Part shown: positions 39,852-54,293 of the stretch, one piece after another
Numbering within the stretch: the first letter of the stretch is position 1
Layout: each line of letters starts with the position of its first letter
DNA from: Deltaproteobacteria bacterium
GTDB taxonomy: Bacteria > Myxococcota_A > Polyangia > Haliangiales > SHYZ01
Assembly (NCBI GenBank): GCA_016210055.1
Contig: JACQUZ010000103.1
Span: 1 to 64,000 of the forward strand
DNA: 64,000 nt
Reading direction: 5' to 3'
Notes under the pieces: model-generated
What the model was told of the DNA's origin: nothing
Databases searched by the model: none
Seen by the model: the letters and a program-made list of their open reading frames with translations, nothing else
Position numbers and translations under genes: made by a program

Positions 39852-40691
39852 TTGCGACGAGGAGTGCACAGGCTGCTGTCAGCACTCGTGTTCCTGAGTG
39901 CGCTGAGCGCGCTGAGCCCGGGTAGAGCTCTCGGAGAGACGTCCGTCCCCAAGCCCCTGCAGGGAATTGACATCGTCGAGAAGCCGGGCTCGAGATTGCC
40001 CCTTGACCTCTCGCTGCGCGATCAGTCGGGCCAAGTCGTGTCGCTGGGCAGCTATTTCGGGGAAAAGCCGGTTGTCCTCGTTCTCGCCTATTACCAATGC
40101 CCCATGCTTTGCACGCTCGTCCTAAATGGCGTGACCGAGGGGCTCAAGGGACTGGCGTGGGCGGCTGGAAACGAATTCCGAGTGCTCACCGTGAGCATTG
40201 ACCCGCGCGATAGCGCGTCGCTGGCCCGCGAGAAGCGCCAGAACTACTTGGCGGCGTACGGGCGTCCCGTTTCAGAGAAGGGCTGGGACTTCTTGACAGG
40301 TGACGAAGGGACGGTGCGGGCGTTGGCTGAATCCGTTGGCTTTGGCTACCGCTGGGACGGGGAGACGAAGCAATTTGCCCACGCTGCTGGCCTGTTTGTC
40401 CTTACCCCAGATGGGCGGCTTTCGCGCACCCTCTACGGTGTTCGCTTCAAGTCAAGCGACCTGCGCTTGGCGCTCCTCGAGGCCTCGCAGGGAAAACTCG
40501 GATCAGCATGGGAGCGCGTCATCCTATTCTGTTTTCACTATGACCCCAGTGCGCGTGGCTATGTCCTGGCCACCACCCGGATCGTGAAGGCCTCGGGAGT
40601 CCTCACGATTCTCATTCTTGGCGGTTTTCTTCTCCGGCTATGGCGCAGGGAGCGGAGACAGGCCACTGGATCCCCGGAGCATGGACAATGA
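39852..40691 (+). CDS. Sco1/SenC family copper chaperone
   Basis: A 279-residue periplasmic protein with an N-terminal signal peptide/anchor and a thioredoxin-like Sco domain. The copper motif is CPMLC (Cys83 and Cys87, CxxxC), and the downstream His of KQFAHAAGLFVLTP is the third ligand. A C-terminal membrane helix (VLTILILGGFLLRLW) is an extra feature. Sco proteins deliver copper to, or reduce the cysteines of, the CuA site in CoxB. The gene begins with a TTG at 39852 and its stop overlaps coxB (ATGA), which fits a role in maturing that subunit. Confidence 0.9.
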   Translation: MRRGVHRLLSALVFLSALSALSPGRALGETSVPKPLQGIDIVEKPGSRLPLDLSLRDQSGQVVSLGSYFGEKPVVLVLAYYQCPMLCTLVLNGVTEGLKGLAWAAGNEFRVLTVSIDPRDSASLAREKRQNYLAAYGRPVSEKGWDFLTGDEGTVRALAESVGFGYRWDGETKQFAHAAGLFVLTPDGRLSRTLYGVRFKSSDLRLALLEASQGKLGSAWERVILFCFHYDPSARGYVLATTRIVKASGVLTILILGGFLLRLWRRERRQATGSPEHGQ

Positions 40692-41650
40692 GCGCATTTG
40701 AACCGAAAAAAGTGCCGCCAGTAGAGATCGATTCGTTCTGGCTCCCCAAGCAGGCATCCACCCTAGCCAAGGATATTGACGCGGGATGGGACGCGGCCAT
40801 GCTCGTGTCCATCATCTTCTTCGTGCTTGTGGTGGGGCTAGCCGCGTACTTCTTGGTAAGGTACAAGCGGCGCAGCGCCTCAGACGTTACAAGTGAGGTC
40901 GACCATTCGACCAAGCTCGAGCTCACCTGGAGCGTGATCCCGCTGGGAATCGTGATCGCGCTGTTTTTCATTGGGCTCAAGGGGTATGTCAACGCGGCCG
41001 TTGCACCGGCCGAGGCCTATGAAATCAACGTGACCGCTGCCCAGTGGAGCTGGTCGTTTTCTTACCCCAACGGGACGATCTCCGACGAGCTCCACGTGCC
41101 CAAGGGACGCCCGGTGCGGCTCATCATGAGCTCAACCGATGTCGTGCATAGCTTCTACATCCCCGAGTTCCGCGTGAAGTCCGACATTATTCCCGGCCAG
41201 TACACGACCGTGTGGTTCGAGGCCACGGAGGCCAAGGAAACGACCCTGTTCTGCACTGAATACTGCGGGAAGGCCCACTCGAACATGCTCGCCAAGGTGG
41301 TGATCGACGAGGAAGAGAAGTTCAACGAGTGGGTGGAATCGGGGGGCGGCACCAAGGAGGTCTCGCCTGCTGAGCTAGGCAAGTCGCTGCATGAGAGCCG
41401 GTGCGCGCCCTGTCACACCATCGACGGCACGAGGACCATCGGGCCTTCGTTTAAAGGGCTATTCGGCCGTGAAGAGGCCCTGGCCGACGGATCTAAGGTA
41501 ATGGTAGATGAGAATTATCTTCGCGAGAGCATCCTGGAGCCGACCAAGAAGGTGGTGCAAGGCTACCCAGCGGCCATGCCCACGTTTTCCGGGATGCTAA
41601 CGGACAAGCAAATCGACGCTCTCATCGCGTTCATCAAAACCCTGAAGTAA
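40688..41650 (+). CDS. coxB: Cytochrome c oxidase subunit II with fused cytochrome c (caa3-type)
   Basis: A 320-residue CoxB. There are two N-terminal membrane helices (about residues 36-57 and 81-100) and a periplasmic cupredoxin domain with the CuA ligands His154, Cys189, Cys193, His197, Met200 ([12 protein letters not shown]). A cytochrome c domain is fused C-terminally, with CAPCH (239-243) and a probable axial Met in AAMPTF (Met297). The fused heme defines a caa3-type oxidase and lets ACIII donate without a soluble cytochrome. The ATG at 40688 overlaps the Sco stop; the listed upstream frame adds residues without support. Confidence 0.95.
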
Positions 41651-41685
41651 GAAAGCCGATTACGCCGATTACGGACGGAAAAACC

Positions 41686-43323
41686 ATGTCGCAGAGCATG
41701 CTAGCAGACGCGCCACAACCAGAATTCCTTCCGCCGAGGGAGTCTAGCTACCTCACCGCGTATCGAGGAATCACGTCGTGGCTCACCACGCTCGATCACA
41801 AGCGGATCGGGCTCATGTACCTTGGGAGCACCTTCGCGGCATTCCTGGTCGGGGGCCTGCTCGCGCTGCTCGTGCGCCTGGAGCTCTTGCATCCTGGCCA
41901 GCAGTTCATGAGCGCCGAGCTTTACAACCAGGCGTTCACGCTGCACGGCGCGATCATGGTGTTCCTCTTCATTATTCCAAGCATCCCAGGCGCGATTGGC
42001 AACTTCATCCTGCCCATGATGCTGGGGGCCAAGGACGTGGCGTTTCCCCGTCTCAACTTGATGAGCCTCTACTTGTACTGGATCGGGGCGGCGTTCAGCA
42101 TCGCGGCGATCGTGCTGGGTGGATTCGACACGGGGTGGACTTTCTACGTCCCCTATTCCGTGAAGACGAGCGGTGCCGTCATTGCGGTCACTTTAGGCGT
42201 CTTCGTTATCGGATTCTCGAGCATCCTGACGGGCCTCAACTTTATCGTGACCATCCACAAGCTGCGCGCGCCGGGGATGGGTTTTTACAAGATGCCGCTC
42301 CTCCTCTGGGCGCTCTACTCCAGCAGCGTGGTGCAGATCCTCGCGACCCCGGTGCTGGCCATCACGCTCCTTCTGCTCGTGTTCGAGCGTGCCTTCCACG
42401 TAGGCATTTTCGACCCGGCCCTTGGCGGCGACGCGGTCCTCTTCCAGCACTTCTTTTGGTTCTACAGCCACCCCGCCGTGTACATCATGATCCTGCCGGG
42501 GATGGGCATGATCAACGAAATCATCTCGGTTCACGCGCGCCGCAAGATCTATGGCTACAAGATGATCGCTTACTCGAGCGTGGCGATCGCCCTCATCGGC
42601 TTCCTCGTGTGGGGACACCACATGTTCGTGGCGGGACAGAGCGAGCTAGCATCCACGATCTTTTCGGCTCTGACGTTCCTCGTCGCGATTCCGTCTGGGA
42701 TAAAGGTCTTCAACTGGGTGGCGACCCTGTGGCGAAGCTCCATTGCCTACACGACGCCCATGTTTTTTGCGCTCTCCTTCCTCTTCCTATTCGTGATCGG
42801 GGGCTTGACCGGCGTCTTCTTGGGGATGCTCGGCGTGAACATGCACCTCCACGACACGTATTTCGTGGTGGCCCACTTCCATTACACCATGATGGGAGGG
42901 ACGGTTATCGCGTTCCTTGGCGGCCTGTTCCACTGGTGGCCCAAGATGACGGGCCGGATGTACTCCGAGAGGCTTGGCAAGATCTCCTGCCTGCTCATTT
43001 TCATTGGCTTCAACATGACCTTCTTCTCGCAGTTTATTCTCGGAAGCCGTGGGATGCCGCGGCGCTACTACAACTACCTCGACCAGTACCAACCTCTCCA
43101 CGCGTTCTCCACGTTTGGTTCATGGGTCCTCGGGGCCGGCTTCCTGGTCATGATCTACGCGTTGTTGATTTCGCTGAAGAACGGTGCAAGAGCGCCAGCC
43201 AATCCATGGGGCGGAATGAGCCTCGAGTGGAAGACCTCATCGCCGCCTCCGCCAGACAACTTCCACGAAACGCCGGCCATTGTGCATGGGCCGTATGACT
43301 TCAACGCGGGGGTGGCCAAGTGA
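41686..43323 (+). CDS. coxA: Cytochrome c oxidase subunit I, type A2
   Basis: A 545-residue heme-copper oxidase subunit with twelve or more helices. Metal ligands are visible: His87 (TLHGAIM, heme a), His262, His311 and His312 (CuB), Tyr266 (the cross-linked tyrosine, in SHPAVY), and His397/His399 (VAHFHY, heme a3 and heme a). The position of the D-channel Glu of type A1 enzymes (GHPEVY) reads YSHPAVY, the tyrosine-serine motif of type A2 oxidases such as Thermus caa3. It reduces oxygen to water and pumps protons. It sits 35 bp after coxB, and its stop overlaps coxC (GTGA). A long reading in another frame (41778-43298) is a GC artefact. Confidence 0.96.
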
Positions 43324-44009
43324 GCTCGCACGGTGTTGCCCACGAAGGGCGTGGTGCCCATGACGCGGGCGCAGGCTCGCCACAGTTTCAAGTCGCGCAC
43401 CACTTCGACTCTCCCGAGACCCAATTTGCTTCGGGTCGGATGGGGACCTGGCTCTTCCTGGTGACGGAGATCCTCTTCTTCGGCGGCCTATTCTGCGCCT
43501 TCTTCATCTATCGAAGCTGGTACCTCGACGCCTTCGTCGAGGGGCACAAGCACTTGGATAAGGTCATGGGCGCCGTCAACACGATGGTGCTCATCTTGTC
43601 GAGCCTCACGATGGCGCTGGCAGTTCGCGCCTCGCAGCTCTCCAAGAAGCAGCAGGCATTTCATTTCCTGCTTGCCACCTTCGTCCTGGCGGCCGTCTTC
43701 CTCGTTATCAAGTATCTAGAGTACAGCCACAAGGTTCATGACGGTTTGCTCCCTGGCAAGTACTTCACTGGGCAGGGATTCCAGCACGCGGAAGCGAGCA
43801 TCTTCTTTGCGCTCTACTTCGTCATGACGGGTATCCACGGCCTCCACGTGGTCGTCGGGATGGGACTCATCCTTTGGCTCTTGATTCGTAATCAAAAAGG
43901 CCATTTCTCGAGCCGATACCATGCTCCCGTCGAAAACGTGGGGCTCTACTGGCACCTGGTGGACATGATCTGGATTTACCTCTTTCCATTGCTTTACCTG
44001 GTCGGGTGA
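43320..44009 (+). CDS. coxC: Cytochrome c oxidase subunit III
   Basis: A 229-residue polytopic subunit, starting at a GTG overlapping the coxA stop. Conserved subunit III segments are visible: [59 protein letters not shown] and [22 protein letters not shown] (the HxxDxxW pattern). It supports the stability and proton uptake of CoxA. It is followed 12 bp later by the subunit IV-like gene. Confidence 0.95.
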
Positions 44010-44021
44010 CCGGAGGCTGTG

Positions 44022-44444
44022 ATGACACATCAAGGATCTCACGCGGGGAACGGGCAAGATCACGTCTCGCACGTACTTCCGACAAAAGCCTACTTGAAGA
44101 CGTGGTTGGCCCTGGTTGTTCTGACCGCGATAACCGTGGCGGTGAGTTACCTGAGCTTTGGCACGTTCAACCTGGTCATCGCCCTCCTCATCGCGACGAT
44201 CAAGGCGACGGTGGTCGGGGCGGTCTTCATGCACCTTTTCTTTGACCACAAGTTCCATTCCCTAATTTTCGCCAGCTCGATCATCTTTCTCGGGATTTTT
44301 ATTGGATTCACCATGAGCGACACCGAGGCGCGAGGGCGAGCGGAGAGGATTGAGCGGGAGCGGCCGGCGGATGTCTCGAAGCCTTTCTCGGGGACTCGCA
44401 GTGAGGCCGCCCAAAAAGCAGCTCACGCTCCGTCCGCACGCTGA
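44022..44444 (+). CDS. coxD: Cytochrome c oxidase subunit IV-like (CoxD)
   Basis: A 140-residue membrane protein with about three helices (TWLALVVLTAITVAVSYLSFGTFNLVIALLIATIKATVVGAVFMHLFFDH and LIFASSIIFLGIFIGFTM), the prokaryotic cytochrome c oxidase subunit IV profile. The N-terminal TKAYLKTW and the HLFFDHKFH motif fit the family. The ATG at 44022 follows GGAGG; a GTG at 44019 is one codon earlier. The polar C-terminus may be disordered. Last gene of the coupled act-cox operon. Confidence 0.88.
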   Translation: MTHQGSHAGNGQDHVSHVLPTKAYLKTWLALVVLTAITVAVSYLSFGTFNLVIALLIATIKATVVGAVFMHLFFDHKFHSLIFASSIIFLGIFIGFTMSDTEARGRAERIERERPADVSKPFSGTRSEAAQKAAHAPSAR

Positions 44445-44533
44445 TCGCCTCGCGCACCTGACCTTCGCCCTGGGGCAGCCTTCCTGTTGGGACGCGAACT
44501 GGATGCCATGAAGGCGCGCTAGAATGGCGACCC

Positions 44534-45328
44534 ATGTCCATGCTCCGCGTTCCGCATCTCAAGAGATACCGGCCTGGCGCTGAGAACGACATCGCGCCCC
44601 CTTCCCAGGAAGCCCTCTCGTTTTCCTTCAAGTGGTTCGCTGCTCTCGACGCGTACCACCGCTACCGGATCGAGGGGCTCGAGCACGTCCCTCGCTCGGG
44701 ACCCGGGCTCATCGTGAGCCACCACAGCTATATCGTCATCGACACGATGCTTCTCTTCCGCCGGATCTACCTCCGCGACGGCCGCATTCCTCGGTCCCTC
44801 ACCGACCACGCCATGTTCAAGATTCCAGTGATCAGGGATCTCTTTTACACGTGGGGCGTTCTCGACGGGACCCCGGAAAATGGTCTCCGAGTGCTCGCTG
44901 ATGGGCAATTGGCCCTCGTGATGCCCGGCGGTGGGCTCGAGTGGTCGCGGCCTTCGACCCAGGCGCAGAGTCTTCGCTGGGGGGAACACCGAGGCTACGC
45001 CCGTCTCGCGATTCGCGCCGGAGTGCCGATTATCCCGACCGCGTGCCCATCTGCCGACCACCTCTACATCGTTCCCTTTGACGCCTGGAAGGTCGCCAAG
45101 ACCTTGGAGCAGTGGCTCGGCATGCACCGAATTCCGCCGATGCCTATTGGCTTCGGCCTCGGGCCTTTGCCATTTCCGGTTCGCCTCACCCAATACGTGG
45201 CTCCCCCCATCCTTCCCGACGTGTCCCCCGAGGCGGCTGATGATGAGGTGGCGGTGAAACGACTCGACGACAGGGTTCGTGAGGCCATCACCGAGTTGCT
45301 CCACCGGCGATCGCCGGCGGGCAGCTGA
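44534..45328 (+). CDS. 1-acyl-glycerol-3-phosphate acyltransferase-like protein
   Basis: A 264-residue PlsC-superfamily acyltransferase. The catalytic block reads GLIVSHHSYIVIDTM: His and Asp are five residues apart, as in the TMEM68/DGAT-like subgroup rather than the classic HxxxxD. The glycine motif LVMPGGGLEWSR (the GGxxE acid) and VPIIPTACPSADHLYIVPFDAW are also typical of that subgroup. It probably transfers acyl groups to a glycerolipid at the inner membrane, or makes esters or triacylglycerols. It lies between coxD and the RegB-like kinase, with independent spacing (90 bp before, 75 after). Confidence 0.8.
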   Translation: MSMLRVPHLKRYRPGAENDIAPPSQEALSFSFKWFAALDAYHRYRIEGLEHVPRSGPGLIVSHHSYIVIDTMLLFRRIYLRDGRIPRSLTDHAMFKIPVIRDLFYTWGVLDGTPENGLRVLADGQLALVMPGGGLEWSRPSTQAQSLRWGEHRGYARLAIRAGVPIIPTACPSADHLYIVPFDAWKVAKTLEQWLGMHRIPPMPIGFGLGPLPFPVRLTQYVAPPILPDVSPEAADDEVAVKRLDDRVREAITELLHRRSPAGS

Positions 45329-45357
45329 AGCTCGGAAAGCTCAACCGGCGATCGCCG
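45303..45357. promoter_or_regulatory. Two palindromic GCGATCGC boxes upstream of regB
   Basis: The 14-bp sequence ACCGGCGATCGCCG occurs at 45303-45316 and again at 45344-45357, the first extending to the perfect palindrome CCGGCGATCGCCGG. The copies are 41 bp apart (start to start); the first covers the end of the acyltransferase gene and the second lies about 47 bp before the RegB-like start. They look like a duplicated operator; a terminator is less likely because no T-tract follows. Confidence 0.45.
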
Positions 45358-45403
45358 CCTCATTGCCCGGCGCGGCCAGTGCGGTAGTATTTTTCCGCGC
45401 TAG

Positions 45404-46684
45404 ATGCGGTTCCTCTTGAAAAAGCGCGCCGTGCACCTCGCCGGCGCCATGGCTTCACGAGAAGGAACAGCCCATCGCTGGTTGATCATCCTTCGGTGGG
45501 TCGCCGTCCTCGGGATGATTTCGACGACGGTCATCGCCGAGCACCTGGTGCCAGGACTAAGGACACTCCCTATCTTCGTCGCCATCTCGGCCATCGCCCT
45601 TGTCAACCTCGCGTGGTCTCTCGCCGAAAAGACGAGATCGTGGCGGCCAAGCGTGACGTGGCAGGTAGTCCTGGACGTACTAGCGCTCGTGCCAGTTCTC
45701 TGGTACTCGGGCGGGATAAGCAACCCCTTTGCTAGCTTCATTGCCTTCCAAATCGTGCTCGCAGGCCTCCTTTGCAGCGGACGCGCAACCATGGCCATTG
45801 CATCGCTCGCTCTCCTCGTCATCATGGCCCTTTGGCTTGCGCCACCTCTCCCACTCGAGACCGCACGGATTGGGGGCTCTGAAGTGCGGAAGATCGGCCA
45901 TTTCGTGTCGCTCACCGCCCTGAGCACGTTTGTGGGCCTCTTCGTGCTCGTGTACGCGAAGCAGCTCGGTGAGCTTCGTCAAGAAGGCGCGCGGAACGAG
46001 CGGCTCACCATGCTCGGGCGGCTCGTCGGTGGCCTTTCTCACGAGCTCAACACCCCGCTCGCCACGATACTCCTGGCGAGCAAGGACTTGGTCGCCGCGG
46101 GCCGCGAGCTCCAAGCGAGCGAGATCACCCACCTCTCCAAGACCATCGCGGAAGAGGCGCAGCGCGCAAGCGATATCATTGGAGTCATGCGAGGGCACGT
46201 CCGGCCGGACCAGTTCACAGACACCCTCGAGCTCAAGAGCTTCGTCACCGATTTCACCCAGAGGGAGCTCGACCGCCTTGGTTTCGATGGGGAACGAGTC
46301 ATCGTCGCCCAAGAGCCCGTGCATCTCTCGGTGCTCACGGCTGGCTTGTGCCAAGTCCTCTCGAGCGTGCTCACGAACGCCGTTGAGGCGACGGCTCCTC
46401 TTGCCCGCCGCCGCATTGAAGTGGGCGTGACCTTAGGTGACTCCCAGGTGGAGGTGAGCGTTAGGGACAATGGCCCGGGGATTAGCTCGGAGGTACTATC
46501 TCACCTCGGTGAGCCATTTCAGACTACCAAAGGCGGGCAGGGGGGGATGGGCTTAGGCCTGTACGTGAGCTCCACGCTCGCACGAAGGATGGACGCCCTC
46601 TTGCGCGTGGAGAGCCCCGAAGAAGGGGGAACCCTGGTGACGCTCAGCCTCAAGCGCGCGGCGTCGGTTTTCTCGGTGAGCTAG
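45404..46684 (+). CDS. regB: RegB/PrrB-like redox sensor histidine kinase
   Basis: A 426-residue membrane kinase. About six N-terminal helices enclose the loop GGISNPF (residues 103-109), the GGxxNPF quinone-binding heptapeptide of the RegB/PrrB family. The H-box is GLSHELNTPLATI (His213) and the ATPase core has DNGPGISSEVLSHLGEPFQTTK plus GMGLGLYVSS. The cytoplasmic redox-active Cys of RegB, in the RCR-IL segment after the H-box, is here Ala255 (EAQRASDII). RegB senses the quinone pool and phosphorylates RegA to control respiration and redox genes. The ATG at 45404 is used; an ATG at 45449 is possible. It is 3 bp from the regulator gene. Confidence 0.87.
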   Translation: MRFLLKKRAVHLAGAMASREGTAHRWLIILRWVAVLGMISTTVIAEHLVPGLRTLPIFVAISAIALVNLAWSLAEKTRSWRPSVTWQVVLDVLALVPVLWYSGGISNPFASFIAFQIVLAGLLCSGRATMAIASLALLVIMALWLAPPLPLETARIGGSEVRKIGHFVSLTALSTFVGLFVLVYAKQLGELRQEGARNERLTMLGRLVGGLSHELNTPLATILLASKDLVAAGRELQASEITHLSKTIAEEAQRASDIIGVMRGHVRPDQFTDTLELKSFVTDFTQRELDRLGFDGERVIVAQEPVHLSVLTAGLCQVLSSVLTNAVEATAPLARRRIEVGVTLGDSQVEVSVRDNGPGISSEVLSHLGEPFQTTKGGQGGMGLGLYVSSTLARRMDALLRVESPEEGGTLVTLSLKRAASVFSVS

Positions 46685-46687
46685 GCC

Positions 46688-47230
46688 ATGCGTTCCGTCA
46701 ACACCGCATTGCTCGTCGATGATGATGATGCCTTCCGCACCACGCTGCAGGGATCCCTCCGGCGCCGAGGAGTGCGCGCCCAGACGGCAGCCACGGTCGA
46801 GGAAGGACTGGTTTTGGTCGAGGATGAGCAGGTGGACTTGATCGTGCTCGACTATCGAATGCCGAGGGGGGACGGCCTGACCGCCTTGTCGCGATATCGG
46901 CGCCAATGTCCCGACGCGGCGATCATCATGCTGACCGGTTACGGCGACATCCCGCTCGCCGTCGCGGCCGTGAAAGAAGGGGCTGACACGCTGCTCAGCA
47001 AGCCCGTGGATGCAGACCGCCTGCTTCGGGAGGCCGAGGCGATTCGGGGGCGCCCGCGAGCCATCGCGTACCACCTGCCGCTTCCTCAGGGCTCCTACAA
47101 CCTCGACGAGCTCGAGCGGGAGGCCATCAAGGCGGCGCTCAAGCAGAGCGGGGGCGTCGTCGCCAATGCCGCCAAGCTCCTCGGGATCGACAGGCGCACC
47201 CTGCAGCGCAAGCTCAAGAAGATCGTGTAG
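46688..47230 (+). CDS. regA: RegA/PrrA-like response regulator with Fis-type HTH
   Basis: A 180-residue regulator of the same length and order as RegA/PrrA/ActR. The receiver domain contains the acidic triad (LLVDDDDAF, phospho-acceptor Asp55 in LIVLDYRMPRGDG, Thr/Lys in MLTGYGDIP and LSKPVD, Lys105). After a short Pro-containing linker (PLPQGS) comes a Fis-like helix-turn-helix (AIKAALKQSGGVVANAAKLLGIDRRTLQRKL) whose recognition helix RRTLQRKL is typical of RegA. It probably activates or represses respiratory operons such as act-cox. Its gene follows the kinase gene by 3 bp and overlaps the converging glycosylase gene by 17 bp at the 3' end. Confidence 0.9.
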   Translation: MRSVNTALLVDDDDAFRTTLQGSLRRRGVRAQTAATVEEGLVLVEDEQVDLIVLDYRMPRGDGLTALSRYRRQCPDAAIIMLTGYGDIPLAVAAVKEGADTLLSKPVDADRLLREAEAIRGRPRAIAYHLPLPQGSYNLDELEREAIKAALKQSGGVVANAAKLLGIDRRTLQRKLKKIV

Positions 47231-47915
47231 TGGATCGGCGCGCGCGCGCGCGCTGGTGCACCTCATGGCAGTCGCGGCGCAACGGGCACAGGTTGCACGC
47301 GGGCTTGCGTGCCGTGCACGTGGTCCTGCCGAGGTCAAGCATGGCCAGGTTGAAGCGAGCTGGATTTCCAGCAGCCCGCGCCATGGCGAGAGACAATGAC
47401 CGGATTTCTGGGCAGCGACGTGGGTCCCGGGGCCTTTGCAACCCGAGGAGCCGGCAGTAGAGTCGAATGGTATTGGAATCGAGGAGCACGTCTGTCAGGC
47501 CATGCCCGAACACCCGAACACAGCTCGCGGTGTAGTCCCCGACGTGTGGAAGGGACTCGAGGACCGTCTTATCAGACGGCACCACGCCTCCATGCCTCTC
47601 GGCGAGGAGCTTGCCTACTTGCTTGAGCGCGACCGAGCGTTTTCCCGACAGCCCGAGATCCCGAAGCAGGGTTGCCAGGGTGCCGACACGCGCCTCCGCC
47701 AATTTCTCTGGCGTGGGGTATCGCAGCATGAGCTCGTCGAACACGCCGACCACTTGCCCGGCGGTGGTCTTGCGGAGGAGCATTTCGGCCACGAGGATGG
47801 GGTATGGGCTTCGCGTGTTTCGCCACGGATAGCTGTCCTCGACGAGCCGGATCGTGTCACGCCAGGCGAGGGCGTTGCGAATGACGCGCGCGGCGCGGCG
47901 TGGGAGTGGTCCCAT
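47214..47915 (-). CDS. HhH-GPD DNA glycosylase, Mig-like G:T mismatch (thymine) glycosylase
   Basis: A 233-residue helix-hairpin-helix glycosylase. The hairpin motif is LPHVGDYTA (residues 122-130), in which the position of the endonuclease III lyase Lys is Tyr128, as in the thymine glycosylase Mig.MthI; the catalytic Asp is Asp146 in LLDSNTIR. A [4Fe-4S] site is complete: Cys200, 207, 210, 216 (C-x6-C-x2-C-x5-C). The segment MLLRKTTAGQV matches the Mig pattern, not the MutY QQT motif, and the MutY C-terminal 8-oxoG domain is absent. It probably removes T from G:T mismatches left by deamination of 5-methylcytosine. The gene is divergent from the cytosine methyltransferase by 47 bp. Substrate assignment is inference. 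Confidence 0.85.
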   Translation of the reverse strand: MGPLPRRAARVIRNALAWRDTIRLVEDSYPWRNTRSPYPILVAEMLLRKTTAGQVVGVFDELMLRYPTPEKLAEARVGTLATLLRDLGLSGKRSVALKQVGKLLAERHGGVVPSDKTVLESLPHVGDYTASCVRVFGHGLTDVLLDSNTIRLYCRLLGLQRPRDPRRCPEIRSLSLAMARAAGNPARFNLAMLDLGRTTCTARKPACNLCPLRRDCHEVHQRARARRSTTRSS

Positions 47916-47962
47916 GTTGACGAGAAAAAAGTGTAGGCCCTATCCTCGATGCGGGCAATCGA

Positions 47963-49099
47963 ATGGCATTGACGGTTCTCGACCTTTACAGCGGTTGTGG
48001 CGGCCTGAGCCTCGGGTTTGAGCTTTGCGGCGCGTACCGGGTGCTCGCAGGGCTCGACAAGTTTGAATGGGCGGTGAGATCCTTCTACGAGAACCACCCC
48101 GCGGCGTGCCGAGGGTTTTCGCTCCCCGTCGATATTGGCGCCACGACTGGAGACAAGATCGTCGAGATTCTGGGCGAGCGTCCCGACGTCGTCGTCGGTG
48201 GTCCTCCCTGTCAGGGGTTCAGCAAGGCGGGCCGGAGAACGGGTGCGGATCCGCGCAATGCCGAGGTCTGGAATTTCCAACGCCTGACCTGCGAGCTATC
48301 GCCCTCGGCGTTCGTCATGGAAAACGTCGACGGGCTGCTCACCACGGGGCAAGCGACCAGGGGATCCATCGTCTCGGAGCTGGCCGATCGCTTTGAAGGG
48401 CACGGCTATGCGATGCATTCCGCGATTCTTGATTCGGCACATTTTCGCGCGCCTCAGCGACGAAAACGCTTCTTCTTGGTGGGCCTTAAGGAGAAAGCCC
48501 ATTTCGCGTTTCCCTCGCCAGCCTGTGGCGACGAGGGGCCCGAGCCCTTCTGCACCGTATCGGATGCGCTCGATGATCTTCCGACCCCGTTGCCGCAGGA
48601 CCCTCAGCCCTATGGGCCCAAGCGACCGACCACTTGGTTGCAGCGTTTCTTGCGGGAAGGATCGCACGCGCTCCATCAGCACTCCTTGACCGCCCACGCG
48701 CCCGAAATGGTGCGTCGCCTGCGGGTGCTCAAGCAGGGAACCCGCCTTTACCCAAACTGGAACCACTCGTGGTACCGACTCGATCCCGAGCGCCCATCGC
48801 CCGCCGTCAAGGAGAACCACCGAGCGCCGTTCGTGCACCCTGCCGAGTCGCGCGTCGTCTCGGTGCGCGAGTGCGCCCGCCTGCAGACGTTCCCTGATCG
48901 CTATCGGATCTTGGGCACGAAAACCGCGCAGCTCATTCAGGTGGGAAATGCGGTTCCCGTGCTGCTTGCAGCAAGCGTGGCCACATCGCTCGCCCACGCT
49001 CTGGGTTGTGCCTCAGAGGTAACCTGTCCGGGTGGATTGCCGAGTCGCTTCTTGCCTTTCGTGAAAGCACCTGCGAGGCGAGTTGTCAGGAATGGTTAG
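47963..49099 (+). CDS. DNA (cytosine-5-)-methyltransferase
   Basis: A 378-residue m5C methyltransferase with all key motifs: I (DLYSGCGGLSLGFE, SAM binding), IV with the catalytic Cys83 (GGPPCQGFS), VI (VMENVDGLL), VIII (QRRKRFFLVG) and X (QVGNAVPVLLA). The target-recognition region lies between about residues 180 and 290; its specificity cannot be read. The length suits a stand-alone or type II modification enzyme. The divergent Mig-like glycosylase fits repair of deaminated 5-methylcytosine. No restriction endonuclease is recognisable in the neighbouring genes, so this may be an orphan or regulatory methyltransferase, or a reduced restriction-modification locus. Confidence 0.93.
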   Translation: MALTVLDLYSGCGGLSLGFELCGAYRVLAGLDKFEWAVRSFYENHPAACRGFSLPVDIGATTGDKIVEILGERPDVVVGGPPCQGFSKAGRRTGADPRNAEVWNFQRLTCELSPSAFVMENVDGLLTTGQATRGSIVSELADRFEGHGYAMHSAILDSAHFRAPQRRKRFFLVGLKEKAHFAFPSPACGDEGPEPFCTVSDALDDLPTPLPQDPQPYGPKRPTTWLQRFLREGSHALHQHSLTAHAPEMVRRLRVLKQGTRLYPNWNHSWYRLDPERPSPAVKENHRAPFVHPAESRVVSVRECARLQTFPDRYRILGTKTAQLIQVGNAVPVLLAASVATSLAHALGCASEVTCPGGLPSRFLPFVKAPARRVVRNG

Positions 49100-49244
49100 C
49101 CCCGTCGAGAAGCCGCCTTGAAACGCAACTTGGCGATGTGCAAGTGGTTGCCCTACTTGCCCCTGCTCCTTGACACCCTCTGTACCCCTGTAGTACAGCC
49201 GTGCGCAGGCCGAAACTTTACCCAATGAAAGAGGGCGGTCGTAG

Positions 49245-50429
49245 ATGAAGAACGCGATACTCGTGGGACTTGCGCTCGGTGCGAGCGTGGTCCCAAGGCT
49301 GGCGTTTTCGGAGACAGCGGAAGTCGAATCCAAGAAGTCGCTCCCCCTCTATGGGTTGAGCTTTGGGCTCGGCGTCGAAGACACATCGGGCGTCAATTTC
49401 GAGCCCGAGAATTACAACAACGTCCTCTCGTACAGCTTCTCCACGAGCTGGCAGGCCGGAAAGCTTCTCGCCAAGGACACGTTTTGGGAGCCGCTCAAGG
49501 CGTCTGCGAGCTTCAGCCTCTCGCACGAGCTTGCTGGTAATAGCGAGCTTTACCGTGGGACCCAGTTCTCTCCGTCGTCGCGTTATTACTCGAACCGCGC
49601 GGACTCGATCTTCATCGACGACACGGGCGGGATCGTGAACGTCGAGTCGGTGCCCCGTGGGGGATTCGACGGGGCTGACAAGCGACTCAACTACTCGGAC
49701 ATCTCCCTGTCGCTCGAGCATTCCAAGATCGCCGAGCTCGCGAGCCTCGGAGGAGCGAGGCTAAGCGGTGGCCTCCGCGGCGCTCTGCCGATCTCGGTAT
49801 CCAGCCGCAACGCAGACCTCTACACGAACTTGGCGCTGTCCATGGGTCTCCGGTGGAAGCTCATGGAAGATAAATTGTCGCTATCCCTGAATCTTGGGGC
49901 GACCAAGCACTTCGGTGCCTACAAGAACGCCAGTATTAAGACCAATGACGACACCATAGACGTCAACGGCGTGCCCTATGATCCCCCGACGATTTATCCT
50001 GCCAAGGGCGGCAAGAGCACGAACTTTGGACTTAGCAGCGGCCTCAGGGTGGGCTACGAAATTAGTGATAGCCTGAGCGCGAGCGCTCGCTATTCCCTGT
50101 CTGCAAGCAGGTCTTATGGGATTTCGGACTGCACCCTCGAGGTCGCCGGCTCGGGCACCGTGGACGTTTGCCAGAGCAACGAGGAGTTGGGCGTCACCGC
50201 GGGCGGCGATTGGAGGAACAGCCAGGCTTTTGGGATTGGGCTTTCCTATACGGTAAATGATTGGCTCGGCTTGGGTGCATCCTTGAGCACCGAGTCGCCT
50301 CTTCGTCAAGCAGACGGGCATGGTTACCGCCAGCCATTCGTCAATCTCAATCGAAATGGTTACACCAGCGTCGGCGTGAGTGCCGATATCACGGTGGAAG
50401 AGTTCTACAAGGTCGTGGCCAAGAGGTAG
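49245..50429 (+). CDS. Exported barrel-like protein of unknown function
   Basis: A 394-residue protein with a Sec signal peptide (residues 1-22) and no lipobox. The mature part is dominated by amphipathic beta strands with Ser/Gly/Thr (LSYSFSTSWQAG, ASFSLSHELAGNSELYRG, ALSMGLRWKLMEDKLSLSLNLGAT, SLSASARYSLSASRSYG, AFGIGLSYTVNDWLGLGASLS), consistent with a 12-16-strand outer-membrane barrel. I do not recognise a porin or TonB receptor motif. It precedes the large metzincin lipoprotein by only 27 bp on the same strand, so both may be surface components expressed together. Confidence 0.7.
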   Translation: MKNAILVGLALGASVVPRLAFSETAEVESKKSLPLYGLSFGLGVEDTSGVNFEPENYNNVLSYSFSTSWQAGKLLAKDTFWEPLKASASFSLSHELAGNSELYRGTQFSPSSRYYSNRADSIFIDDTGGIVNVESVPRGGFDGADKRLNYSDISLSLEHSKIAELASLGGARLSGGLRGALPISVSSRNADLYTNLALSMGLRWKLMEDKLSLSLNLGATKHFGAYKNASIKTNDDTIDVNGVPYDPPTIYPAKGGKSTNFGLSSGLRVGYEISDSLSASARYSLSASRSYGISDCTLEVAGSGTVDVCQSNEELGVTAGGDWRNSQAFGIGLSYTVNDWLGLGASLSTESPLRQADGHGYRQPFVNLNRNGYTSVGVSADITVEEFYKVVAKR

Positions 50430-50456
50430 TTATTGAAAACGGACATGGAGGCATCA

Positions 50457-53400
50457 ATGAGGTCGACGCTCCGAGTAGCCGCTGTTCTAGCCCTGGGAAT
50501 CGCGGCCGTAGGCTGCGCCGAGGAACGGGAACCTCGGTCTTACGTGCAGCCGAACGTGATCAAGAAGACGGATCTTGCCGGTACCTGGTACTACAAGGGG
50601 ACCGTCATCGACAACCCGGCGATTACCGGTCCAACGTTCAAAGGCTATTACGCCGCGGCGATGGACAAGATTACGTTCGAGATCCGCGAAGACGTGCTGA
50701 TCGCGCGGCGAACGTACGAGACGTTCCAGGGCGCCGAGGACGAGTTCCGGGAGAAGAAGGAGGGGGCGGTTGCGCAGCCGATCGCCGCATGGCGGGTCTC
50801 CCACCTCGACATCATTCGCGACTACAACGCGGCGACGGGCGAAGAGACGAACGTCATCCGTGAGTCCACGGAGCGACCTTGGTACGAGCGCGACTTTATC
50901 CGCGTGGATTGGAGCGAGAGCCTCATCACCAACTACTACGATCCGCTCTTCACGTTTGACGATATCCAGGTCGATCCTGTCAGCTACTTCGTGACGGATC
51001 CGAACGATCCGGATGCATTCCATGCTGAGCGCGACAAGAACAAGAGCATTACGTATTTCGACTTCGTCAACAAGCTGTCGATCAAGCCGCTCCAGCAGGC
51101 GTACGAAGACGAAGACGGGCACGTTCATTCCTTCCCGGCCTGCTACTTCCTGTACCAGCCCTGGGATTGCAACGCCCAGATCGCGCGGATTCGGTACTCG
51201 TTCCTCAAGGTGGATCCGCGGCGCCAGGAGCAGTTCGATTTCATTCCCTGGAGCGACCAGGATCAAAAGCTGTTCGGCTTCTTCGATTCAGAGCGGAAGA
51301 GCTACAACCGGCAATACGGCGCCACGCTGAGTGGCCGCGCCAAGCTTAACGGCCGCTTCAGACTCTGGAAGGAAGCCTACGAGAAGAACGCGGACGGCAC
51401 CCTGAAGCTCGTCGATGGCAAGGTGGTTCCGCTTGCGCACGACAAGCGCGAGGTAGAGCCGATCCTGTACTACCCGAACAGCGAGTTCCCGGATTCGCTC
51501 CGAAACGCTGGGCAAAAGATCATGGACGAGTGGGACGTGGCCTTCAAGGCCACGGTCACCGGGCTTGGCGGCCAGCTCCCGTCTGACGGTCATGTGGTCG
51601 TGTGGTGCCCGCACAACCCGACCCAGGCAGGGGATCCAAAACAGTGCCTCGAGCACGCGGCGAACGCAAAGCATCCAGACGGCGTGGGAGTCACCATCAA
51701 CGACGGCGACCTCCGCTTTAACCTGCTCGCGTGGGTCAACGAGCACCAGACCACGGGGCCGCTCGGATTCGGCCCGTCGTTCCAGGATCCGGAGACCGGT
51801 GAAACCATTCAGGCAGAAGCCTGGGTTTATGGCGCCGCCCTGGACACCTACGCGACGTGGGGGCGTGACCAGGTACTCCTCCTCCTCGGCAAGATCGATC
51901 CTAAGGAGTACATCAAGGGCGTAAACGTTAGCGATTACGTCAAGAAGATGCGCTACGGCAAGATGGATCAGCCGACGTACACGCCTGAGGATATCGCGAG
52001 GGCCTACAGCAAGATGCGGACGAGCTTCGTGAAGGATAGCAACACTCACGTCAAGCTCGACCTTTCCAATCCGTGGAAAATCGGACGATCGCTTCGCAAC
52101 CGCATCGAGGCAGTCACCGAAAGTGGCGTTCTCGGCGATGGGCTCAATCGCGTGGCCGACGCGCTAGCGAATCTCCGCGCCCGCGATCCTGGCCTCGAGC
52201 GACGCCTCTTGACTCCCGAGCTCATGCAGGCGAACGGTGACCTGCTCGCACAGCTCGGACTCGATCCGAGCACTGATCCTGCCCTCTTGCCTCAATCGGT
52301 GGTCGAGAAGGCCTCGCCGCTAAGCTATGGAAAGATGTTCCACAAGCGTGAGGCGCTCAGGCGTCGCGCAGCACGCCATGCCATCGATTTCTGGGAGCTG
52401 GATGCTGGATTTACCGATGATTCCGTCGCTGGCGTGGCGAAGGAGCTAGCCGCTAAGTTCAACCTCGATACGGAGGAAGGCAAGGAAGAGGCTCGCAAGT
52501 GGATTCGCGAGCAGGTGTATATCGGCGTCGCGCTCCACGAGGTTGGCCACAACTTCGGCCTGCGCCACAACTTCTCGGGCTCCTTTGACGCGATGAACTA
52601 CCACGACAAGTACTGGCAGCTCCGCACCAAGAATGGCGCTCTCAAGGACACCTTGAAGCCGCGGTTCGTCGATGCGGAGGGTGGAAAGATCACCCAGGAA
52701 GAAGTCGACGGACGTATTTCCGAGTACCAGTACTCGACTGTCATGGACTACGGCTCACGGTTTAATTCGGACATCCAATTCCTGGGCAAGTACGACATCG
52801 CGGCAATCAAGTACGGATACGGCCGCCTCGTCGAGGTGTTCGATAAGGTCAAGGAAGAGCAGGACATTATTCTCATTAATCTGTTTAATTCCTTCGGCTT
52901 CCCGACCCCGATTCGAGGGAACTTCAACAGCGCGATCAACTACTGGCACCTGCCGCGGCTGTTCGACAGCCTCGACGACATGAAGACCCGTTCCGACGTC
53001 AAGTTCCTAGACATGCAGTACGACCAGGAGTACGGCATCCCTTGGGCCGCGAAGGACGGCAGGATGCGCGTGCCCTACAAGTTCTGCAGCGACGAGTTCC
53101 GCGGCTTCGATCCTGACTGCAACGTGTACGATCAAGGGGCCGATTTCTACGAAATCGCCAACGACATCATCACGCGGTACAAGAACGATTACATCTTCAA
53201 CAACTTCAAGCGCGACCGCCTGCTTTGGTCGCACTCGGGCTACGTGAACCGCATCATGGGGCGCTACCTCGAGCCTCTGCGTGGGCAAATGCAGTACTTC
53301 GCCCTCTACAGCACGATTTTCGCTGAAGAGGCGCCCAAGTGGTTCTTTGGCGCAAGCACGCCAGAAGGGATCGACAAGGGCTGGGGGTTCTTTACGATGG

Positions 53401-54293
53401 CGGTCTCCGAGAGCTTCCAGCTCCTCGGCGACATCATCACGATGCCGGAGCCGGGAAAATACAGCAAGTTCCCGAAACAGATCCTGTCGGACGACCCGGG
53501 TAATCAGTCAACGACCATTGATCTCTATCTCCAGCAGTCGGAGGACGTGGAGGAGAGTGGCGAAATAGCGGTGCCGCTCGGAGAAGGGAAGTTCTTCAAC
53601 TTCACGTGGGACTACAACGCCAGCTATTACTGGTACGAGCGGCTGCTTCGCGTGGGCGCTTACCTCGATAAGATACTCGCGGTAAACACGATCACGAATC
53701 CCGATTCGAACTTCGTGGCAATCGACACCGGAGCGGAATCGCGGCGTTATGCCATGAACTACTTCCTGCTCTATCCAGAGCAGATGAAGAAGATGCTCGG
53801 CGCGGTCTTGACGCAGGAGTACAAGCAGTTCGCGCCGCAGGTGGTGAACCCAGGACAGCCCACTCAGTCCATCTATCGCCCCAATTGGTTGTTCGGGGAC
53901 GAGGCGACAGTGCAAAAGGGCATAGCGATCGATCCGTGGGCGTCGACCACCGTGCAGGATAACGTGGCCATCTATGGCGTCATTTTCATCCCAGCCTCGT
54001 GGGATACGACTTGGCGTGACGAGGCTCGTATCTTCCTTGCTGGCAACGGTGAGGCCATCGATCTCAAGAGCGACGACGTCACCACCTGCTACGATCCGAC
54101 GTCCGGGCGGACCTACGTGGCGAAGGAGACCTTCGTCGGCGCCGACGGGCAGGCGCACGAAGGAATTGGATCACGCATGCTTCGCAACCTATGCCGCCTG
54201 AAGACGGATCCGACGAAGCCGCAGTCGATCTCCTACCTCAACTACGTGGACAACATCGAGATCATGCGCCGGTTGACCCGGGATTACTTGTAG
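50457..54293 (+). CDS. Large zinc-dependent metzincin-type lipoprotein metalloprotease
   Basis: A 1278-residue lipoprotein (signal peptide ending in LGIAAVGC). The active site is HEVGHNFGLRH (zinc ligands His694, His698, His704; catalytic Glu695), followed about 70 residues later by a Met-turn YSTVMDYG (Met763): together a metzincin signature. This resembles the DUF4953/DUF5117-type zinc metalloproteases common in Bacteroidota and Myxococcota. The N- and C-terminal flanks (about 650 and 500 residues) lack recognisable domains but are rich in aromatic and Asp residues. The ATG at 50457 follows GGAGG; a TTG at 50433 is less likely. It probably degrades protein outside the cell or on the surface. 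Confidence 0.88.
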   Translation: MRSTLRVAAVLALGIAAVGCAEEREPRSYVQPNVIKKTDLAGTWYYKGTVIDNPAITGPTFKGYYAAAMDKITFEIREDVLIARRTYETFQGAEDEFREKKEGAVAQPIAAWRVSHLDIIRDYNAATGEETNVIRESTERPWYERDFIRVDWSESLITNYYDPLFTFDDIQVDPVSYFVTDPNDPDAFHAERDKNKSITYFDFVNKLSIKPLQQAYEDEDGHVHSFPACYFLYQPWDCNAQIARIRYSFLKVDPRRQEQFDFIPWSDQDQKLFGFFDSERKSYNRQYGATLSGRAKLNGRFRLWKEAYEKNADGTLKLVDGKVVPLAHDKREVEPILYYPNSEFPDSLRNAGQKIMDEWDVAFKATVTGLGGQLPSDGHVVVWCPHNPTQAGDPKQCLEHAANAKHPDGVGVTINDGDLRFNLLAWVNEHQTTGPLGFGPSFQDPETGETIQAEAWVYGAALDTYATWGRDQVLLLLGKIDPKEYIKGVNVSDYVKKMRYGKMDQPTYTPEDIARAYSKMRTSFVKDSNTHVKLDLSNPWKIGRSLRNRIEAVTESGVLGDGLNRVADALANLRARDPGLERRLLTPELMQANGDLLAQLGLDPSTDPALLPQSVVEKASPLSYGKMFHKREALRRRAARHAIDFWELDAGFTDDSVAGVAKELAAKFNLDTEEGKEEARKWIREQVYIGVALHEVGHNFGLRHNFSGSFDAMNYHDKYWQLRTKNGALKDTLKPRFVDAEGGKITQEEVDGRISEYQYSTVMDYGSRFNSDIQFLGKYDIAAIKYGYGRLVEVFDKVKEEQDIILINLFNSFGFPTPIRGNFNSAINYWHLPRLFDSLDDMKTRSDVKFLDMQYDQEYGIPWAAKDGRMRVPYKFCSDEFRGFDPDCNVYDQGADFYEIANDIITRYKNDYIFNNFKRDRLLWSHSGYVNRIMGRYLEPLRGQMQYFALYSTIFAEEAPKWFFGASTPEGIDKGWGFFTMAVSESFQLLGDIITMPEPGKYSKFPKQILSDDPGNQSTTIDLYLQQSEDVEESGEIAVPLGEGKFFNFTWDYNASYYWYERLLRVGAYLDKILAVNTITNPDSNFVAIDTGAESRRYAMNYFLLYPEQMKKMLGAVLTQEYKQFAPQVVNPGQPTQSIYRPNWLFGDEATVQKGIAIDPWASTTVQDNVAIYGVIFIPASWDTTWRDEARIFLAGNGEAIDLKSDDVTTCYDPTSGRTYVAKETFVGADGQAHEGIGSRMLRNLCRLKTDPTKPQSISYLNYVDNIEIMRRLTRDYL

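What the first reader, a model, noticed from the sequence alone, without database searches (positions are those of the whole stretch)
47214..49099. Divergent Mig-like G:T glycosylase and m5C methyltransferase without a visible restriction enzyme
Seen: a 233-residue HhH-GPD protein with the Mig-type motif LLRKTTAGQV, Tyr128 at the endonuclease III Lys position, Asp146 and a four-Cys iron-sulfur site, starting 47 bp from a complete m5C methyltransferase on the other strand. Known: Mig.MthI is encoded beside M.MthTI, and vsr-type repair enzymes often sit with cytosine methyltransferases to fix m5C deamination. Inference: the pair is a self-contained methylation-plus-repair module. With no endonuclease nearby it could be an orphan epigenetic mark, a decayed restriction system, or a defence unit in which the glycosylase attacks DNA with abnormal bases.
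Basis: partly seen in the sequence, partly recalled or inferred. Interest (0 to 1): 0.62.

Follow-up and report, generated by a model that had tools for sequence, protein, structure and literature searches.

The report
Methylation gene paired with mismatch repair
Two neighbouring bacterial genes appear to put a methyl mark on DNA and to repair the mutations that this mark causes; it is a divergent but ordinary example of a known pairing, unusual mainly in having no cutting enzyme beside it.

Summary
47214-47915 (-) encodes a 233-aa HhH-GPD/4Fe-4S glycosylase; 47 bp away 47963-49099 (+) encodes an m5C methyltransferase with all main motifs. The glycosylase is Mig-type, not MutY or endonuclease III. 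Its best sequence and fold match is Mig.MthI (1KEA). It keeps that enzyme's two substrate-selecting residues (A50 and L187, here A52 and L190), lacks the MutY C-terminal domain, and falls outside a 100/99-supported MutY clade that includes this genome's own MutY. The pairing is general: outside Thorarchaeota, 12 of 14 Mig-like genes from a genome-collection scan lie within 1.6 kb of an m5C methyltransferase gene, against 0 of 14 MutY-type genes. Relatives sit inside type II, McrBC-type, Mza-like and DISARM-like loci. Here no endonuclease is beside the pair, the flanking gaps leave no room for a remnant, and this is the only m5C methyltransferase found in the genome, which also lacks Vsr. Best reading: a Dcm/Vsr-like solitary methylation-plus-repair unit using a Mig glycosylase. 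Whether it is a kept orphan mark or what remains of a restriction system is unresolved, and no activity was measured. The defence-glycosylase idea has no support. New member of a known kind; low-to-moderate interest.

The parts
47214..47915 (-). Mig-type HhH-GPD 4Fe-4S DNA glycosylase, 233 aa; E44, A52, Y128, D146, L190, C200/207/210/216
   Evidence: Pfam; best PDB sequence hit 1KEA Mig.MthI E 1.7e-30; residues; tree; AlphaFold2 pLDDT 94.4, top fold hit 1KEA; PADLOC PDLC03398 E 1.8e-30
47963..49099 (+). m5C DNA methyltransferase, 378 aa, motifs I, IV, VI, VIII, IX, X present, target motif unknown
   Evidence: PF00145 E 1e-53; TIGR00675 dcm superfamily above cut-off; only PF00145 gene found in this genome
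47916..47962 (.). 47-bp divergent intergenic region; one weak sigma-70-like match on + strand (chance expectation 0.5), no proof of a promoter
49100..49244 (.). 145-bp gap between methyltransferase stop and next operon; too short for an endonuclease or a sizeable remnant

Best explanation
A two-gene, divergently transcribed methylation-plus-repair unit. The methyltransferase puts 5-methylcytosine at its (unknown) target sequence. When a 5-methylcytosine deaminates to thymine, the Mig-type glycosylase recognises the T:G (or U:G) mismatch, flips out the T and cuts the N-glycosidic bond. Having Tyr instead of the catalytic Lys it should be monofunctional, leaving an AP site for the cell's ordinary AP endonuclease, polymerase and ligase to restore C:G. 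It does the job Vsr does for Dcm in E. coli, with a different enzyme class. Shown by sequence: the two genes, family assignments, specificity residues, recurrent linkage, absence of a neighbouring endonuclease and of Vsr. Inferred: G:T activity, target motif, and that the pair now acts without restriction.
For: Best PDB hit is Mig.MthI by sequence (E 1.7e-30) and by fold. A52/L190 equal Mig A50/L187, the residues whose change to V/Q turned Mig.MthI from T:G to A:G preference (PMC2714593); most MutY homologues have V (a few T, I, L or A) and Q. No MutY C-terminal domain: about 16 residues after the match against mostly 130-200 in MutY. MutY clade 100/99 excludes it. Own genome has separate MutY and Nth. 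Linkage: 12/14 non-Thorarchaeota Mig-likes near a methyltransferase versus 0/14 MutY-type, plus annotated plasmids and six relatives of the same order. No Vsr in this genome.
Against: No activity measured. Mig F27 and R47 are replaced by Y29 and K49. Swapping the two selecting residues into E. coli MutY did not create T:G activity (PMC2714593), so residues alone do not prove it. The query sits on a long branch and the Mig-like backbone is unresolved. The genome is a draft of 180 contigs with 5.85% estimated contamination, so an unlinked endonuclease cannot be excluded. Two UDG-family genes elsewhere could share the load.
Confidence: 0.82

Rival explanations
1. What remains of a type II restriction-modification system (or of an Mza/DISARM-like locus) whose endonuclease has been lost; methylation and repair persist without present use. 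(This shares the biochemistry of the best explanation and differs only in history and present use.)
For: Relatives of the glycosylase lie with endonucleases or restriction ATPases: NgoFVII-type, EcoO109I-type, FokI cleavage domain, HNH, Z1/AIPR/DUF4420, McrB/McrC, DrmA. The only same-family genome searched with the methyltransferase lacks a homologue, and its regBA orthologue locus was recovered without the pair, so the pair was probably acquired.
Against: Both genes are intact with complete catalytic motifs, and there is no endonuclease fragment: gaps of 47 and 145 bp and a convergent overlap with the upstream gene. Intact genes suggest selection still acts.
Confidence: 0.35
2. A complete restriction system whose endonuclease is encoded elsewhere in the genome or is of an unrecognised family.
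For: Type II endonucleases are often unrecognisable by profile; genome is a draft. Several linked genes in relatives have no Pfam match.
Against: Cognate endonucleases are almost always adjacent (general knowledge); neighbours on both sides here are ordinary metabolic, signalling or envelope genes.
Confidence: 0.1
3. A defence unit in which the glycosylase attacks phage DNA with abnormal bases (Brig-like) or acts as a restriction glycosylase (PabI-like).
For: Glycosylases with defence roles exist: Brig1, Brig3, PabI (PMC11078745, PMC13160076, PMC4081073); Mig-likes occur inside defence loci.
Against: Brig1 and Brig3 are of the UDG superfamily and PabI is a half-pipe fold; this is HhH-GPD with Mig mismatch-type residues. 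In relatives a separate nuclease or ATPase is often present, so the glycosylase looks like the accessory part.
Confidence: 0.04
4. The glycosylase is a MutY paralogue repairing A:8-oxoG, next to the methyltransferase by chance.
For: NCBIfam mutY is the best NCBIfam match (118 bits); annotators often call such proteins A/G-specific adenine glycosylase.
Against: Match is far below the mutY cut-off of 286.5; no QQT, V or Q residues; no C-terminal domain; outside the MutY clade; own MutY elsewhere; recurrent linkage.
Confidence: 0.04

Closest known systems
Mig.MthI with M.MthTI (Methanothermobacter; PDB 1KEA)
   Same: Same size and fold, E, A, Y, D, L active-site residues, 4Fe-4S site, link to an m5C methyltransferase (linkage of Mig.MthI itself from general knowledge; its role against 5mC deamination from PMC2714593)
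   Different: 31% identity; F27 to Y and R47 to K; no endonuclease beside it here, whereas the MthTI system has one (general knowledge); bacterial genome rather than a thermophilic archaeon
E. coli Dcm/Vsr
   Same: Solitary m5C methyltransferase with a linked T:G repair enzyme and no endonuclease (PMC12907096 introduction)
   Different: Repair enzyme is an HhH-GPD glycosylase, not a Vsr nicking endonuclease; genes divergent rather than co-transcribed; target motif unknown
Caulobacter ScmA/VsrA (PMC12907096)
   Same: Solitary cytosine methyltransferase functionally tied to a T:G repair enzyme
   Different: VsrA is unlinked and Vsr-type; here linked and Mig-type
Mig-like genes of Caldicellulosiruptor pCALKR01 (L080) and of same-order relatives L156-L159
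   Same: Mig-like gene plus m5C methyltransferase gene in one locus, divergent in L080, L156 and L158
   Different: Those have endonuclease, Z1, McrBC or DISARM-like genes alongside

Membership tests
Mig-type G:T mismatch glycosylase | HhH-GPD fold with C-terminal 4Fe-4S cluster | tested here: met
   Pfam; model pLDDT 94.4 and top fold hit 1KEA
Mig-type G:T mismatch glycosylase | Substrate-selecting residues A50 and L187 | tested here: met
   A52 and L190; role from PMC2714593
Mig-type G:T mismatch glycosylase | Tyr126, Asp144 and Glu42 | tested here: met
   Y128, D146, E44; shared with many MutY, so not diagnostic
Mig-type G:T mismatch glycosylase | Accessory (not defining): F27 and R47 of the thymine-methyl pocket | tested here: not met
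   Y29 and K49; PMC2714593 says they may not be absolutely required, so treated as accessory
Mig-type G:T mismatch glycosylase | Excises T from T:G | not testable with these tools
   needs enzyme assay
MutY adenine glycosylase | QQT motif, V45 and Q182 equivalents | tested here: not met
   RKT, A52, L190
MutY adenine glycosylase | C-terminal 8-oxoG-recognition domain and place in MutY clade | tested here: not met
Endonuclease III | Catalytic Lys of the HhH | tested here: not met
   Tyr128 aligned to Lys of own Nth
m5C DNA methyltransferase | PF00145 with motifs I, IV, VI, VIII, IX, X | tested here: met
   and sequence
m5C DNA methyltransferase | Recognition sequence | tested here: inconclusive
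   k-mer test in 385 kb of the genome against sister genome gave no convincing depletion
Type II restriction-modification system | Adjacent cognate endonuclease | tested here: not met
   no endonuclease or space for one next to the pair
Dcm/Vsr very-short-patch system | Vsr endonuclease | tested here: not met
   no PF03852 match in genome
Brig-type defence glycosylase | Uracil-DNA-glycosylase superfamily fold | tested here: not met
   HhH-GPD; Brig fold from PMC11078745 and PMC13160076

The most novel reading that the evidence does not exclude
The glycosylase stabilises the solitary methyltransferase in an addiction-like way, as proposed for VsrA/ScmA in Caulobacter, so that the bare divergent pair persists as a selfish epigenetic unit without restriction, using a glycosylase instead of Vsr.
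Probability: 0.08. Interest if true: 0.6.

Novelty: new member of a known kind. Interest (0 to 1): 0.25.

Why it matters
It adds a bacterial example in which a Mig-type glycosylase rather than Vsr accompanies a solitary m5C methyltransferase. The survey suggests that Mig-like glycosylases are a general repair accessory of m5C-based restriction and defence loci, including type II, McrBC-type, Mza-like and DISARM-like ones, in archaea and several bacterial phyla. They are sometimes annotated as A/G-specific adenine glycosylases or left hypothetical. Two residues plus the missing C-terminal domain separate them from MutY, which is useful for annotation.

Tried and rejected
The alignment of 16 Mig-likes was too diverse to use as a search pattern; a three-sequence alignment worked. 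Prediction of the methylated motif from k-mer depletion in 385 kb of the genome against 321 kb of the sister genome: CCGG is mildly low (o/e 0.92 against 1.00), but GC content differs (63% against 71%) and other words vary as much, so rejected as inconclusive. Empty-site comparison: the sister genome carries RegB (52%) and RegA (79%) orthologues on a contig where neither gene of the pair was found, and a more distant relative carries the barrel/metalloprotease pair elsewhere, so the pair looks inserted between two unrelated operons, but no same-genus genome was available to show a clean empty site. Base composition as a sign of recent transfer: GC3 of the pair (0.72-0.75) is only at the lower end of its neighbours, not informative. 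Viral collection: one relative only. Primary Mig.MthI paper asked for is not held.

Full report
OBSERVATION. The two ORFs exist at the stated coordinates: 47214-47915 on the minus strand (233 aa) and 47963-49099 on the plus strand (378 aa), start codons 47 bp apart. The first has HhH-GPD and EndIII_4Fe-2S domains; the second is a complete PF00145 methyltransferase. The pair sits between a RegB/RegA-like two-component pair downstream of a cytochrome oxidase cluster and an outer-membrane barrel/large protease-like operon. The glycosylase gene overlaps the RegA-like gene convergently by 17 bp, and 145 bp separate the methyltransferase from the next gene.

IDENTITY OF THE GLYCOSYLASE. By sequence the best solved structure is 1KEA, Mig.MthI (E 1.7e-30), ahead of MutY (best 3.3e-26) and endonuclease III (1.2e-14). 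An AlphaFold2 model (mean pLDDT 94.4) has 1KEA as top fold match, MutY cores close behind, so fold alone does not decide. Residues do: Mig.MthI A50 and L187 versus V45 and Q182 of E. coli MutY set T:G versus A:G preference, and A50V/L187Q makes Mig.MthI prefer A:G (PMC2714593). The query has A52 and L190. MutY homologues fetched here mostly carry QQ at the positions of R48/K49, V (some T, I, L or A) and Q, and most have 130-200 further residues of C-terminal domain; Mig-likes carry mostly A, L/W/Y/F and D194, with almost no tail. In a maximum-likelihood tree all MutY rows form one clade (100/99) that leaves out the query, 1KEA and 34 Mig-likes; the order of branching among Mig-likes is not resolved and the query has a long branch. 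Tyr128 at the endonuclease III Lys position predicts a monofunctional enzyme but is shared with many MutY. PADLOC's only match is one type II accessory model of 221 positions, PDLC03398, E 1.8e-30. The genome has its own MutY and Nth, two UDG-family genes and no Vsr.

IS THE PAIRING GENERAL? Yes. A scan of the genome collection with a three-sequence Mig alignment gave 52 loci: 14 MutY-type, 24 Mig-like from Thorarchaeota and 14 other Mig-like. A methyltransferase gene lies within 1.6 kb of 12 of these last 14, of none of the MutY-type and of none of the Thorarchaeota genes (my arithmetic gives about 3e-6 for 12/14 against 0/14, ignoring relatedness and differing contig lengths). Annotated plasmids of Thermus, Caldicellulosiruptor and haloarchaea show the same, while one cyanobacterial plasmid does not. 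So do six Mig-likes in genomes of the window's own order, four with a methyltransferase within about 1 kb and two within 8-12 kb. Over 22 pairs, glycosylase and methyltransferase distances correlate (Mantel r 0.62; 0.49 without near-duplicates; 0 of 5000 permutations as high), so partners tend to travel together. The Thorarchaeota genes show that Mig-like enzymes can also be retained without a linked methyltransferase.

THIRD GENES. In relatives the pair is accompanied by an NgoFVII-type endonuclease (L080), EcoO109I-type (L103), FokI cleavage domain (L120), HNH (L112), Z1/AIPR/DUF4420/GHKL genes as in Mza (L096, L125, L156, L157; GHKL ATPase without Z1 seen in L082, L164), McrB/McrC (L158) or DrmA (L159). 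Several others have neighbours without a Pfam match. In the window nothing of the kind is adjacent, the methyltransferase is the only PF00145 protein found in the 5.43-Mb draft, and the gaps leave no room for a remnant.

ORIGIN. The only same-family genome has regBA orthologues, no methyltransferase homologue, and no Mig-like match of its own (its two matches are of MutY and Nth type by length and score); none of the relatives has a close homologue of either gene (best 40% and 38%). Horizontal acquisition is likely; composition does not date it.

MECHANISM. Best-supported: solitary methylation with dedicated repair of its own deamination products, analogous to Dcm/Vsr. Methylation and G:T excision are inferred from family and residues. 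The orphan and remnant readings are not separated by the evidence; intact catalytic motifs in both genes mildly favour current use. The target motif could not be predicted.

NOVELTY. Mig.MthI linked to M.MthTI (general knowledge), Dcm/Vsr and solitary methyltransferases are known. What is modestly new is a divergent bacterial member without an adjacent endonuclease, and the breadth of Mig-like linkage to several defence-locus types. I found no paper describing that breadth in the library searched, but most subscription literature and REBASE were not searchable.

Noticed in passing
24 Thorarchaeota loci among L090-L124: Thorarchaeota genomes commonly carry a Mig-like glycosylase (mostly A and W at the two selecting positions) with no cytosine methyltransferase within the fetched flanks, suggesting a general chromosomal deamination-repair role.
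   Followed up: partly
L158 4514-9114: A Mig-like/methyltransferase divergent pair directly beside McrB-like AAA and McrC genes, in a relative of the same order; odd because classical McrBC cuts methylcytosine DNA.
   Followed up: partly
L159 and L155: DISARM-like locus (DrmA helicase in L159) with a Mig-like gene and, in L159, a sigma-70 family protein gene next to it; L155 has a near-identical Mig-like and methyltransferase.
   Followed up: partly
L119 3464-6599 (Thermoanaerobacter thermocopriae): Upstream gene, methyltransferase and Mig-like gene all appear split in two frames; a decaying version of the L087-type locus, or sequencing error.
   Followed up: no
L087 171-1172, L085 2445-3557: Genes of 330-370 aa directly upstream of methyltransferase-Mig operons with no Pfam match; candidate unrecognised endonucleases.
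   Followed up: no
window 40640-47230: RegB/RegA-like redox two-component genes downstream of cytochrome oxidase subunit genes and an acyltransferase gene.
   Followed up: no
window 49245-54293: Outer-membrane barrel gene followed by a 1286-aa protein with a zinc-protease-like HExxH stretch; two copies of such a gene pair occur in relative G003 (L140, L141).
   Followed up: partly
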